The notes beneath the pieces are model-generated. The model worked only from the letters and a program-made list of their open reading frames with translations. It had not been told where the DNA came from and did not search any database. Shown here one piece after another: positions 3,315 to 23,741 of a DNA stretch of 64,000 bases. Origin of the DNA: Roseimicrobium gellanilyticum (GTDB taxonomy: Bacteria > Verrucomicrobiota > Verrucomicrobiia > Verrucomicrobiales > Verrucomicrobiaceae). Numbering within the stretch: position 1 is the first letter of the stretch; each line of letters opens with the position of its first letter. The stretch is from NCBI RefSeq assembly GCF_003315205.1, contig NZ_QNRR01000004.1, forward strand, positions 434,001 through 498,000, in the 5' to 3' direction. Made by a program: the position numbers and the translations under genes.

Positions 3315-3512
3315 GAATGTGTGGTGTGGGGGATGAAACGGATGTGGGGAGGATGAGCAAATGCAGGGGCGTGAACATGAACGCGACCCTGCCTCTCTGC
3401 CTTCGCCTACGGATTCGCTTCTCGTGCCACCTTCCGTGGTATGCATGAGGGGATTCACACATCCCTGAGCACCTTCATCGTACTCACGAACGTCCACAGC
3501 CGCGTTCAGGTG

Positions 3513-3579
3513 GGAAGGCCGGAGGCCCTTCGTCCACCCGCGTCCGGCATCGCATCCGCATGAGGCTGACGTTCCACCT
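3513..3579. repeat. Dispersed repeat family D, copy 2
   Basis: Shares a 25-base identical block beginning GGAGGCCCTTCGTCCACC, and a CTGACGTTCCACCT block at nearly the same spacing, with the copy at 11477. It lies between the lipocalin start and small membrane protein paralogue 2. Confidence 0.75.
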
Positions 3580-3603
3580 CACCTCACCTCTGCTCACCTC
3601 ATA

Positions 3604-11595: not shown

Positions 11596-12022
11596 CGATG
11601 GAGAAACCAAGGAGAAACCCAGGACGTTAGGCCTCCGGCCTGACAGCGTGTCCCATGTCACCTGTCACATCACCCGACGAGCTGGAGACGTGGCGGGGAT
11701 TCTGCACGTGATGGGTTCCCCGCTCCTGCCCAAAGCGGTGCTTCGCACGCGCACTCCAAGGCGCTTCGCGCAAGGTGGCACCTGGGCATGATCTTTCACG
11801 GTGCAGAGGGCTGAAGATGTCACGAGACGTTTCTCAAGGTCGAGGGAGTGGTGGGCATAGCGAATCATGTACCTCGGCCCGCTTTCATCAGGCATGAGGA
11901 AGGAGCGCTTTGCGTCGTGGAGTGTGACGTGCCGAGCCCCGCCTTGCGCAGGTGCGTCTGATTAAGAAACCGTGGTGGATGAACAGGGGAATGGGGTATT
12001 GCGCACCACCTCAACGTACCAG

Positions 12023-12262
12023 GTCGCTTTGCGTCCTGGAGTGCGCGTGGCATAGGCCTCCCTTGAGGCCGCGACACCGCTTTGAACGGAGGAATCGCGT
12101 CCTGATCTCCTGGATGGATTCATTGGAACCCAGCATCCGGAGCTTCCCGGTGGGAGAGTATCTTGAGCATTGGATCGTGATACCTCCCCGCGGTGCTCAT
12201 CCTCTCCGTTCAAAGCGGTGTCGCGCTAACGCTTGCCACGCGCACTCCACGACGCAAAGCGG
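12023..12262. repeat. MITE-like element with long inverted arms (family C)
   Basis: The left arm (12023-12092) and right arm (12201-12262) are imperfect reverse complements. The inner parts (12071-12091 and 12204-12224) are perfect over 21 bases around ACCGCTTTGAACGGAG. The outer parts share CGCTTTGCGTC-TGGAGTGCGCGTGGCA. The ~108-bp centre is non-coding. A further arm copy lies at 13588-13650. Confidence 0.7.
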
Positions 12263-12479
12263 TCCTTCCGCGTGCCACGTGAAAGCGAACCGAGATCATG
12301 GTTTGATGTGCCCGCAGATTTTTCTCTTAACCTGGCGCACATGCGCGCTGCGGGACGCGCCTCCCTACCGGATCTTTAAAAGCAGAGACTTTCTTCGGCG
12401 CAAGAACAGCCAGGGTGAAGCACCCCATACGACACACCGGTCCTGCATCTCTTCCACACGAGCATCCTTTTCCCCCTGC

Positions 12480-13523
12480 CTACCGCCGCACCTTGATCGC
12501 CGTGGAGGGGTCGCCTGCGCCTTGGCCCACGCTTTGCCCCATCGGTCCGAGCGTGGGACTGGTCTTGCCCTTGGCCAGCGCTTCGCGCACGGAGAGCGGC
12601 TTCTCACCGGTGTCTGCGGTGCCCGGAGTGCCCATGCCTACACTGCCCCCACTGCCCACGGATTCCATCTTGGGACCGCCCACTTTCATCTCCAGTTTTT
12701 CGCGATTCATCGACGCGATCACCACTCCATCATCTTTCAGCAGGAGTTCGCCTGCCTTTTGCCCAATCTTGCTGTGGTCACGCACATGGGTGATTCCCGC
12801 TTTGGCCAAGTCCCCCTGTAGCTTGGCCAGATGGCTCCGGTTACCCGTTTCCGTGGAGATGCCCGGCATCAGGACCACCTGGAGACGGCCCGGCTCCAGC
12901 TCTGGATCCACGGCCTTCATCGCCTCCAGCGCGTCTTCGATGGTAGGTATCCCCGAGCCATCATACACATGCATCATGGCGCCCACGTTGGTCTCCGGAT
13001 CGAACAAGCACACACCCGTGCAGGTCGCCAGGTCGGCAGTGCGCAGCGCCTGGCCCTTCTCGAGTTTCGCCGCGACGACTTTCCCCATGTCAGCATAGCC
13101 CACGACTGCAGACGTGCCCTCGGCGCGATCCAGGACCGTCGGCAGCCTCAATTCCATTGCGCCCTTGTCCATGCGCTCGGCCTCTTCGTGGTGCCTTGCT
13201 TCTTCCAGCTCCGACGCCGTCGACATGTCCGTCTCAACTTCGAAGGACACCGCGTGTTCTTCCCGCAGCCGTTTCCCGGCATCCTTCACGCATTGGGCCA
13301 CTCCCTTGAGCCATCCCTCTACATTCTTCGGCTGGTCGGTCAGGACGGTGTCCCCCCACTCTCTCAACTCAGAGAGGACGAGTTCATTCATGCGCGCCTC
13401 CTTGGAGGGAGTCAGCTCCATCTCGCCGATGAGCGTCTCGATGTGGCCCATCACCCGTGTCACCACCGTGGATTTCTCATCCAGATTGAGGGCCGATGCG
13501 ATTTCTTCGGGTTCCAGAGGCAT
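12480..13523 (-). CDS. CheD-like glutamine deamidase domain protein, orphan
   Basis: 347 residues. Residues ~135-265 match the CheD fold: RTADLATCTGVCLFDPETN, GAMMHVYDG and GNRSHLAKLQGDLAKAGI. The catalytic triad is conserved with exact CheD spacing, Thr162-x5-Cys168-x16-His185. CheD deamidates or demethylates chemoreceptors with CheC, but no chemotaxis gene lies nearby. The N-terminal ~130 residues are acidic and helical and the last ~70 are Gly/Pro-rich; both are absent from ordinary ~160-residue CheD. Flanked by repeats. Confidence 0.72.
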   Translation of the reverse strand: MPLEPEEIASALNLDEKSTVVTRVMGHIETLIGEMELTPSKEARMNELVLSELREWGDTVLTDQPKNVEGWLKGVAQCVKDAGKRLREEHAVSFEVETDMSTASELEEARHHEEAERMDKGAMELRLPTVLDRAEGTSAVVGYADMGKVVAAKLEKGQALRTADLATCTGVCLFDPETNVGAMMHVYDGSGIPTIEDALEAMKAVDPELEPGRLQVVLMPGISTETGNRSHLAKLQGDLAKAGITHVRDHSKIGQKAGELLLKDDGVVIASMNREKLEMKVGGPKMESVGSGGSVGMGTPGTADTGEKPLSVREALAKGKTSPTLGPMGQSVGQGAGDPSTAIKVRR

Positions 13524-13587: not shown

Positions 13588-13650
13588 GTGGAGTGCTCGT
13601 GGCAAGTGTGAGTGCGACACCGCCTTGAACGGAGGAACGGCGTCCCGATG
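13588..13650. repeat. Family C repeat arm
   Basis: TGGAGTGCTCGTGGCA and GCGACACCGCCTTGAACGGA correspond in order to the left arm of the 12023-12262 element. It is a solitary arm between the CheD-like and xylanase genes. Confidence 0.6.
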
Positions 13651-13814
13651 TTTTGGCAGGATTTCAACAATCTTTGGCGGGGCGTAACCAGACATGGTTC
13701 ATGGATGCACCCATCATGAAGGGCGTGTGCTTCGTGTTCGCATGGAGCGCCGCCGTGTTGTTCAGAGCGGAGGCGCCCACGCGTGTTGGAGTCCATGACA
13801 GCCTGACTATCTTT

Positions 13815-14918
13815 ATGCGCTTCGGACTCACCTTCCTCCCGCTCGTCCTCATGCATCTTCATCTGGCGCAGCCCATGAGCCACGGTGCAGACACGCTCAA
13901 AGAAGCCTCGCCCTTCCCCATGGGCGTGGGCATTCGTGATCGCGTCTTTGAGCTTCCGGGGGATTGGCCACTGCTCACCGCGCACTACGAATACGTCACT
14001 CCGGAGAATGACATGAAGCCCGTGGCCGTGCAGCCGCAGCCGGGACAGTGGCGGTTCGAGACCGCAGACCGCTTTGTCGACTTCGCGCTCTCCAAGAAAC
14101 TCAAGGTCGTGGGCCATTGCCTCGTCTGGGCCAAGGACGATCGCACCCCTCCGTGGTTCGCCACGGATGGGGACAAGCCCGCCTCGCGTGAAGTGCTGCT
14201 CGCACGCATGAAGACCCACATCGACACCGTCGTGGGCCGCTACCGGGGAAAAATCGCCATGTGGGACGTGGTGAATGAAGCGCTGGATGACGGAAGCGCG
14301 TATCTGCGTGACTCCTCATGGAGCCGCGCGTGTGGTGAGGAATTCATCGCCAAAGCGTTTGTCTATGCGCATGCCGCCGACCCGGACGCCTTGCTCATCT
14401 ACAACGACTACAACAACGAACTGGACGGCAAGTTCGAGAAGATGGTGCGGTTGATTGAGTCCCTGCATGCTCAGCAGGTGCCGATGCATGCCATCGGCCT
14501 CCAGGGCCACTACGAACTGGATATGGTACCCTTCGAGGCTCTGGAGCGAACCCTTGCCGCGATGCAGAGGATGGGGATGAAAGTGGTCGTGTCCGAACTC
14601 GACATCGATGTCATCCCCCGTGGTCGCTGGTGGGCGAACAACGGAGCCGAGCGCGCCACCCTCTCAAAGTACGACCCCTACAAGGACGGTTGCCCGCCCG
14701 AGATTCTCCAGCGTCAGGCGGAGCAATACGCGCGCCTCTTCCAGCTTTTCAGGAAGTACTCAGATACCATCCTGCGCATCTCCTTCTGGAACCTGCATGA
14801 CGGCCAGAGCTGGCTGAATGACTTCCCCTGGAAGCGTGCAAATCATCCTCTGCTCTTCGATCGTGAGAAGAAACCCAAGCCTGCCTATCATGCCGTGATG
14901 AGAGAACTCAAGCCATGA
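13815..14918 (+). CDS. GH10 endo-1,4-beta-xylanase
   Basis: 367 residues from MRFGLTFLPLVLMHLHLAQP, a signal peptide, so secreted. The GH10 barrel is well kept: TPENDMKP, VVGHCLVWAKDD, the acid/base WDVVNEAL (Glu155) and the nucleophile VVSELDIDV (Glu261), then FWNLHDGQSWLNDFPW. It cleaves internal xylan bonds. There is no carbohydrate-binding module and no polysaccharide operon around it; the gene stands alone. The frame is open upstream to 13653, but that part reads through repeat sequence. Confidence 0.92.
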   Translation: MRFGLTFLPLVLMHLHLAQPMSHGADTLKEASPFPMGVGIRDRVFELPGDWPLLTAHYEYVTPENDMKPVAVQPQPGQWRFETADRFVDFALSKKLKVVGHCLVWAKDDRTPPWFATDGDKPASREVLLARMKTHIDTVVGRYRGKIAMWDVVNEALDDGSAYLRDSSWSRACGEEFIAKAFVYAHAADPDALLIYNDYNNELDGKFEKMVRLIESLHAQQVPMHAIGLQGHYELDMVPFEALERTLAAMQRMGMKVVVSELDIDVIPRGRWWANNGAERATLSKYDPYKDGCPPEILQRQAEQYARLFQLFRKYSDTILRISFWNLHDGQSWLNDFPWKRANHPLLFDREKKPKPAYHAVMRELKP

Positions 14919-23129: not shown

Positions 23130-23741
23130 GAGGTGGGGACTGGGGAGTATTGGAATGATGGAGTAATGGAATACTAGAATGATGAGCGCTCATCGAACAC
23201 ATCCACCAGCATGCTCATGCAGAGAATGAGAAAGGGAAACGTCCCGTGACCTCATTCGCAGTCCGGAGAAGGAAGCCGTCCCAGGAGGTGCCACCTTGCG
23301 CGTAGCGCTTTGGAGTGCGTGTGCGAAGCACCGCTTTGGTGGGGAACGGTGCAAGCGGGAAGCGCCATTTGGAGTGCTGGAGCTTGCTCCAGCTTTGGGG
23401 AGCAGAGCTTGCTCTGCGTGAAGCCACCGAAAAAATAACCACTCGCGCAGGAGTCCCCGTAGATTCGCCTCGCAGACGAGAATCACATCCGCAGCGGCTT
23501 CACGGCAGCAAGCTGCCTGCGGGAAAGCTGGAGCAAGCTCCAGCACTCCAAATCTCCGGCCCCTGCTCTGCACGCCAAGCTCCCCTCCCAAAGCGGTGCT
23601 TCGCACCGTACTCCAAGGCGCTGCGCGCAAGGTGGTGCACGATGGAGACGAGACATGCCTGCTCGTGTAATTCATCTCACGAGACGGCTCGCAGGCGGCT
23701 GCGGTGTGCAGGGGTAGTTTCATCACATTCGTCCCTTCCGT
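23130..23741. other. Gene-free stretch forming a large imperfect inverted repeat
   Basis: 612 bases between the exporter ATPase and fusion-protein genes. 23285-23640 holds nested inverted repeats of families B and C; the rest shows nothing recognisable. Confidence 0.65.
23285..23640. repeat. Nested inverted repeat of families B and C
   Basis: The outer arms are family C copies in opposite orientation (sharing CCAAAGCGGTGCTTCGCAC, ACTCCAA and CGCAAGGTGG). Inside are family B copies, also inverted, built on the 16-base palindrome CTGGAGCTTGCTCCAG and GCAGCTTGCTGC-type palindromes. The whole could fold into one long cruciform. Confidence 0.7.

What the first reader, a model, noticed from the sequence alone, without database searches (positions are those of the whole stretch)
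12480..13523. Orphan CheD-like deamidase with exact catalytic spacing and extra domains
Thr162-x5-Cys168-x16-His185 equals the CheD triad spacing, yet no chemotaxis gene is near. Extra N- and C-terminal regions double the size. It may deamidate a non-chemotaxis target.
Basis: partly seen in the sequence, partly recalled or inferred. Interest (0 to 1): 0.5.

Follow-up and report, generated by a model that had tools for sequence, protein, structure and literature searches.

The report
Stand-alone CheD-like protein deamidase
A soil bacterium with no detectable chemotaxis receptors carries an enlarged relative of the chemotaxis enzyme CheD with its three catalytic residues intact, so it probably modifies some other, still unknown protein.

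Summary
The ORF at 12480-13523 (-), 347 aa, has Thr162-x5-Cys168-x16-His185 in a CheD-like domain (about 138-270), with a helical N-terminal part (1-121) and a probably disordered tail (272-347). CheD homology is supported by NCBIfam (E 8.6e-05), profile-profile comparison (E 1.3e-10; 60 of 60 shuffled decoys score far lower) and predicted fold (Thermotoga CheD first, Z 13.3; Z 11.3 from the domain's own sequence alone). The spacing is not CheD-specific: human NTAN1 has it too. The 7.93-Mb genome shows no Pfam CheD, chemoreceptor domain or FHIPEP. The family has one paralogue here and one relative in the other genus member, and is absent from the other 55 of 57 genomes searched. All three copies keep the triad, lie among different neighbours and lose several CheD signatures. 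Best reading: a genus-restricted CNF1/YfiH-superfamily cysteine deamidase acting on a non-receptor protein; target and activity are unproven. It is a new variant of a known kind: NTAN1, XopAK/HopK1-type effectors and a moumouvirus CheD already show relatives outside chemotaxis.

The parts
12480..13523 (-). CDS, 347 aa, CheD-like cysteine amidohydrolase with N- and C-terminal extensions
   Evidence: ORF; coding-like codon use, GC3 0.759, within the range of the other well-scoring window genes; two homologues with aligned starts
13161..13523 (-). Residues 1-121: predicted helical N-terminal region, found only in this family
   Evidence: Model: ten-residue mean pLDDT 80-92 for residues 1-90, 37-56 for 91-130; a search with this part alone in G000 and G001 finds the three family members and one further hit at E 0.8; its best structural matches, Z up to 7.4, are within the stated background for helical bundles
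12714..13112 (-). Residues about 138-270: CNF1/YfiH-type (CheD-like) catalytic domain
   Evidence: hhalign to 13 CheDs E 1.3e-10; VIA-align Z 13.3 to 2f9z_C, rmsd 3.1, 133 residues; single-sequence model Z 11.3, rmsd 3.3, 133 residues
13038..13040 (-). Codon of Thr162, aligned with the CheD catalytic Thr
   Evidence: Invariant in 3 of 3 family members and in 16 of 16 with 13 CheDs added
13020..13022 (-). Codon of Cys168, predicted nucleophile
   Evidence: Invariant in 3 of 3 and 16 of 16
12969..12971 (-). Codon of His185, predicted general base
   Evidence: Invariant in 3 of 3 and 16 of 16
12483..12710 (-). Residues 272-347: predicted disordered tail, rich in Gly, Lys and Ser
   Evidence: One segment with pLDDT below 50; a search with the tail region in G000 and G001 finds only the three family members

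Best explanation
The gene encodes a soluble cysteine amidohydrolase of the CNF1/YfiH superfamily, closest to CheD. Cys168 attacks a side-chain amide, His185 activates it and Thr162 orients the histidine, turning a Gln (or Asn) of a target protein into Glu (or Asp). Because no chemoreceptors were found in the genome, the target is probably not a receptor. The helical N-terminal part probably selects the target and the flexible tail may assist in binding or localisation. Shown here: homology, predicted fold, triad conservation, no detectable chemoreceptors, restriction to the genus among the genomes searched. Inferred: that it is active, that it is a deamidase rather than another amidase, and the role of the extra parts.
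For: CheD models are matched by all three members, with E 8.6e-05, 0.0011 and 0.0086. Profile-profile E 1.3e-10 to 13 verrucomicrobial CheDs, score 74.8 against at most 21.3 in 60 column-shuffled decoys and 13.9 for the reversed alignment. Those 13 are genuine: 13 of 13 match Pfam CheD. Fold: CheD 2f9z_C first with Z 13.3, then NTAN1 up to 10.8, YlmD/YfiH 8.0-10.2, BLF1 6.2-6.6 and CNF 5.3-5.6; CheD then NTAN1 also lead with a single-sequence model (11.3 and 9.0). Triad invariant in 3 of 3 members, the other two being 42% and 34% identical to the window protein. In each of the three pairs the catalytic domain is better conserved (55, 46, 63%) than the N-terminal part (32, 26, 42%) or the tail (38, 29, 59%), as expected if catalysis is selected. 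No MCPsignal, PF03975 or FHIPEP in a genome rated 99.73% complete.
Against: No activity is shown and no target is known. Only three sequences exist, so conservation is thinly sampled. The Leu-Pro after His, a 15-column stretch holding Asp-x-Gly, the IG-x-RN and the Arg-Thr of G-x3-RT are not kept in the alignment with CheDs, so the pocket has probably changed and the substrate could be something other than a protein glutamine. The full-length model has low overall confidence (mean pLDDT 65.1, pTM 0.40), the domain model a moderate one (66.6, 0.67). The CheD scores lie far below the curated cut-offs (22.9 bits against 240). For the paralogue the effector family XopAK scores slightly above CheD (19.5 against 19.3 bits).
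Confidence: 0.6

Rival explanations
1. An exported or injected effector that deamidates a protein of another organism, as CNF1-type toxins do.
For: The NCBIfam XopAK effector family is a weaker match for the window protein (E 0.0018) and the first match for the paralogue (E 5.3e-04 over 97 residues), both far below the curated cut-off; the third member has no XopAK match. G001, the other genome with a member, has the same length to the base as a published rhizosphere isolate (7,957,748 bp). A genus-restricted family with two copies and a disordered tail is effector-like (inference).
Against: No type III/flagellar FHIPEP in G000, no type VI VipB and no contractile sheath PF04984 in G000 or G001. 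No shared partner gene among the neighbours scanned, 10, 5 and 5 at the three loci. No hydrophobic signal peptide is visible at the N-terminus (my reading). Type I, II, IV and IX secretion were not tested.
Confidence: 0.15
2. An N-terminal asparagine amidase like NTAN1, feeding a bacterial N-degron pathway.
For: Same triad spacing as NTAN1, second fold match (Z up to 10.8), weak Pfam N_Asn_amidohyd hit (E 0.16). ATE_C, the transferase family that would act on the product (role recalled), is present in both genomes.
Against: ATE_C is in 40 of 57 genomes: the two with this family and 38 of the 55 without it, so there is no specific link. NTAN1 gets its specificity from an appended C-terminal region (PMC7022378); the tail here is predicted disordered. 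ClpS was not tested.
Confidence: 0.08
3. A binding protein or regulator that keeps the fold but does not catalyse.
For: In Bacillus subtilis, binding by CheD matters more for chemotaxis than its enzymatic activity (PMC3513319, passages seen).
Against: All three catalytic residues are kept in 3 of 3 divergent members.
Confidence: 0.1
4. A small-molecule amidase or nucleosidase, as in the YfiH/YlmD branch.
For: YlmD and YfiH structures score Z 8.0-10.2; weak Pfam Cu-oxidase_4 matches in the window protein and the G001 member (E 0.11 and 0.061).
Against: CheD scores higher in sequence and fold. The metal ligands of YfiH were not tested.
Confidence: 0.07

Closest known systems
CheD, chemoreceptor glutamine deamidase (PF03975; 2f9z_C Thermotoga maritima)
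   Same: Predicted fold, Thr-x5-Cys-x16-His, Cys-x7-Pro
   Different: Twice the size; does not keep the Gly of Leu-Gly-Ser-Cys, the Leu-Pro after His, the stretch with Asp-x-Gly, IG-x-RN and the Arg-Thr of G-x3-RT; no PF03975 match; no chemoreceptor domain found in the genome
NTAN1, protein N-terminal asparagine amidohydrolase (6a0e, 6a0f)
   Same: Predicted fold (Z up to 10.8) and triad spacing, with Ser instead of Thr
   Different: From multicellular eukaryotes; specificity comes from an appended C-terminal region, for which no counterpart was seen here
XopAK / HopK1 C-terminal effector family (NF041406)
   Same: Weak profile match through the catalytic domain in 2 of 3 members; a deaminase domain is predicted there (PMC11116571, passages)
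   Different: Far below the curated cut-off; those are type III effectors and no FHIPEP was found here
CheD-annotated protein of Moumouvirus australiensis (A0A2P1EL59)
   Same: Best structural match among viral proteins (E 5.1e-04); also a CheD-like protein outside chemotaxis
   Different: Viral; relation beyond the fold not examined
CNF1, CNFy and BLF1 toxin deamidases
   Same: Superfamily fold at Z 5.3-6.6
   Different: Sequence identity only 4-10% in those alignments; other triad spacing and architecture (recalled)

Membership tests
CNF1/YfiH-like cysteine hydrolase superfamily | Alpha-beta-beta sandwich fold | tested here: met
   By title, 17 of the first 18 VIA rows are CheD, NTAN1 or YfiH/YlmD/DUF152/peptidoglycan-editing proteins, Z 8.0-13.3; the other, 1t8h, has no family in its title. 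Single-sequence model: 24 of the first 25 rows are of these kinds, BLF1 or CNF, 1t8h again the exception
CNF1/YfiH-like cysteine hydrolase superfamily | Catalytic Cys and His, with Ser/Thr or carbonyl as third element | tested here: met
   T162, C168, H185 invariant in 3 of 3 and aligned with the CheD triad; spatial geometry not measured
CheD | Thr-x5-Cys-x16-His | tested here: met
   shared with NTAN1, so not diagnostic
CheD | Match to curated CheD models above their cut-offs | tested here: not met
   NCBIfam 22.9 bits against a cut-off of 240; no PF03975 match
CheD | Residues invariant or nearly so in 13 CheDs outside the triad (Leu-Pro after His, Asp-x-Gly, IG-x-RN, Arg-Thr of G-x3-RT) | tested here: not met
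   Alignments of the CheDs alone and with the 3 family members; the Leu before Cys, the Pro after it and the Gly of G-x3-RT are kept
CheD | Chemoreceptor substrates in the same cell | tested here: not met
   0 MCPsignal matches at E 0.001 in G000; the control rings in 7 of 14 genomes
CheD | Glutamine deamidase activity | not testable with these tools
   Needs an assay
NTAN1 | Appended C-terminal region that gives specificity for N-terminal Asn | tested here: inconclusive
   Tail predicted disordered, pLDDT below 50, but the alignment had three sequences
XopAK type III effectors | Match above curated cut-off | tested here: not met
   17.8 and 19.5 bits against 150; no match listed for the third member
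XopAK type III effectors | Type III secretion system in the genome | tested here: not met
   No FHIPEP in G000; the control rings in 4 of 14 genomes

The most novel reading that the evidence does not exclude
A CheD-derived enzyme captured by soil Verrucomicrobiota without chemoreceptors, fitted with a new helical targeting domain and a disordered tail, that regulates one of the cell's own proteins by site-specific deamidation: a bacterial deamidation switch outside chemotaxis and outside toxins.
Probability: 0.35. Interest if true: 0.65.

Novelty: new variant of a known kind. Interest (0 to 1): 0.38.

Why it matters
Enzymatic deamidation of proteins by bacteria is known mostly from chemoreceptor adaptation and from toxins (recalled). 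A CheD relative that keeps its catalytic residues in a genome without detectable receptors would point to a further use of this chemistry, with a clean test: find the protein whose Gln or Asn is deamidated only when Cys168 is intact. It also suggests that the T-x5-C-x16-H spacing marks a branch of the superfamily (CheD, NTAN1) rather than chemotaxis.

Tried and rejected
Relatives beyond the genus: two scans of genome contigs, one of viral contigs, tblastn of phages and plasmids found none; pattern-based scans can miss distant copies, and records near the window's own may be left out. The phylum search with the three-member profile found 12 genomes besides the own one, but their 13 ORFs are ordinary CheDs. 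Genome neighbourhood as a clue to function: rejected, since the loci have different neighbours (GH10 xylanase and rhodanese; Asp/Asn beta-hydroxylase and AP_endonuc_2 TIM barrel; FtsK, PSCyt1 cytochrome and pseudouridine synthase; 10, 5 and 5 genes scanned). Antiphage defence: 0 PADLOC matches in 3 of 3 members. PHROGs: one weak tape-measure hit in 1 of 3 members (E 0.024), taken as coiled-coil chance. Horizontal origin by composition: GC 0.62 against 0.61 for the window and GC3 0.759 within the range of 17 other genes (0.66-0.82), no support. N-degron link through ATE_C: not specific. Repeats beside the gene as a mobile cassette: nothing like the bracketing pair was found at the other two loci, other units of the cluster occur elsewhere in the window, and the 12000-12480 flank has no plasmid match; not pursued. 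Promoter scan: no sigma-70-like site, and terminator-like sites at chance level. N-terminal domain: VIA rows up to Z 7.4 lie within the stated background for helical bundles. CheC-interface residues (Met101/Phe102 of B. subtilis CheD) were considered but are no test here: in my reading none of the 13 canonical CheDs has Met-Phe at that place either. Literature: nine searches, eight answered; the titles and abstract starts shown, a capped part of the hits, included no CheD-like protein of Verrucomicrobiota outside chemotaxis. I read PMC7330248 whole, saw passages of PMC7022378, PMC8960835, PMC3513319, PMC2883993 and PMC11116571, and of the rest only listings.

Full report
Observation. The ORF at 12480-13523 on the minus strand encodes 347 residues. 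It is a plausible gene: its codon use resembles that of other window genes, a GGTGAG stretch lies just before the ATG (my reading), and its start aligns with those of two homologues. Thr162, Cys168 and His185 stand as described, and no other T-x5-C-x16-H occurs in it. The pattern arises in 98 of 20,000 shuffles of the protein, so alone it is suggestive only.

Homology. NCBIfam places CheD first (E 8.6e-05, 22.9 bits, cut-off 240). The PDB sequence search gives Thermotoga CheD alone at E 0.062 for the single sequence, and first at E 0.0031 for the three-member profile, above three other chains at E 0.17 or worse. Pfam's CheD model is not matched. A likely reason: on a canonical CheD, L009, that model's match begins at residue 52 (profile position 2), just after the catalytic His at 49, so it covers the half where this protein has diverged. 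A profile-profile comparison with 13 verrucomicrobial CheDs gives E 1.3e-10, probability 97%, across 125 columns. All of 60 column-shuffled decoys and the reversed alignment stay at or below a score of 21.3, against 74.8. The 13 CheDs were recruited by the family profile itself and picked by a script that asked for the triad spacing (each of the 13 loci gave one), which biases towards similarity; but 13 of 13 are CheD by Pfam on their own. In reverse, an HMM built from these CheDs finds the three family members (E 3.6e-10 to 2.5e-08) among the genes my caller picked in the window, L005 and L006, the next score being at E 2.1.

Fold. The AlphaFold2 model from three sequences has mean pLDDT 65.1 and pTM 0.40: a helical region (1-121), an alpha/beta domain (139-270) and a tail with pLDDT below 50 (272-347). 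Foldseek ranks CheD 2f9z_C first (E 6.4e-06). VIA-align gives Z 13.3, rmsd 3.1, over 133 residues of a 154-residue chain, then NTAN1 (up to 10.8), YlmD/YfiH (8.0-10.2), BLF1 (up to 6.6) and CNF (up to 5.6). A model of residues 128-280 from the window sequence alone, so without help from any relative (pLDDT 66.6, pTM 0.67), again ranks CheD first (Z 11.3) and NTAN1 second (9.0). In the viral library its only match at E 0.001 or better is a CheD-annotated moumouvirus protein.

Family and distribution. One paralogue lies in the same genome (381 aa, 42% identity, L003) and one relative in the other genome of the genus (439-aa ORF, 34-36%, L002). The other 55 of 57 genomes searched, among them 34 of the same family, have none. 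The phylum search of 387 genomes adds only ordinary CheDs. Phages, plasmids, viral contigs and two scans of genome contigs give none. G001's contig is 7,957,748 bp long, equal to the published chromosome of Roseimicrobium sp. ORNL1 (PMC7330248, read whole); the window therefore probably comes from a Roseimicrobium, possibly R. gellanilyticum (inference). The triad is invariant in 3 of 3 members. In each of the three pairs the catalytic domain is better conserved than the N-terminal part or the tail.

What is lost. In alignment with 13 CheDs, the 16 sequences share Thr, Leu, Cys, Pro, His and one later Gly. The family does not keep the Gly of the Leu-Gly-Ser-Cys motif, the Leu-Pro after His, a 15-column stretch holding Asp-x-Gly, IG-x-RN and the Arg-Thr of G-x3-RT. 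The catalytic centre is kept while much around it is changed.

Context. The genome has no MCPsignal, PF03975 or FHIPEP match at E 0.001, so neither receptor substrates nor the FlhA/SctV export-gate family (names recalled) were found. PF03975 would miss a protein like this one, but it matches all 13 canonical CheDs tested. CheA, CheC, CheR and CheB were not searched. VipB and contractile sheath give no match in G000 or G001 (controls ring in 1 and 3 of 14 genomes). The three loci have different neighbours.

Interpretation. It therefore points to the branch of the superfamily that includes CheD and NTAN1, not to chemotaxis as such. The most economical reading is a protein deamidase with a changed target. 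An exported effector is the main rival: the paralogue's best NCBIfam match is the XopAK effector family (E 5.3e-04, against 0.0011 for CheD), but that is far below the cut-off, the third member does not match it, and the injection machines searched for were not found. An N-terminal asparagine amidase is possible, but ATE_C, which would follow it, is also in 38 of the 55 genomes without the family.

Verdict. Real, correctly described and of moderate interest: a genus-restricted architecture on a known catalytic fold, with the target unknown.

Noticed in passing
window 11873-12294, and 12204-12250 with 13588-13634: Cluster of degenerate intergenic repeats around the gene, including a 47-nt inverted pair (89%) that brackets it; other units of the flank recur at 3512-3582, 23286-23339 and 23587-23635.
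   Followed up: partly
L005:8212-9066 (-): An aspartyl/asparaginyl beta-hydroxylase gene (PF05118, E 1.3e-51) lies 304 bases downstream of the paralogue on the same strand.
   Followed up: no
BFVD A0A2P1EL59: A moumouvirus protein annotated as CheD is the best viral structural match: another CheD-like protein outside chemotaxis.
   Followed up: no
L009:1462-1947 (+), residues 49-52: The Pfam CheD match starts just after the catalytic His (seen on 1 of 13 CheDs), so searches with that model may miss divergent CheD-like enzymes such as this one.
   Followed up: partly
window 13653-14918 (+): A GH10 glycosyl hydrolase gene (PF00331, E 2.3e-85) is the divergently oriented neighbour.
   Followed up: no
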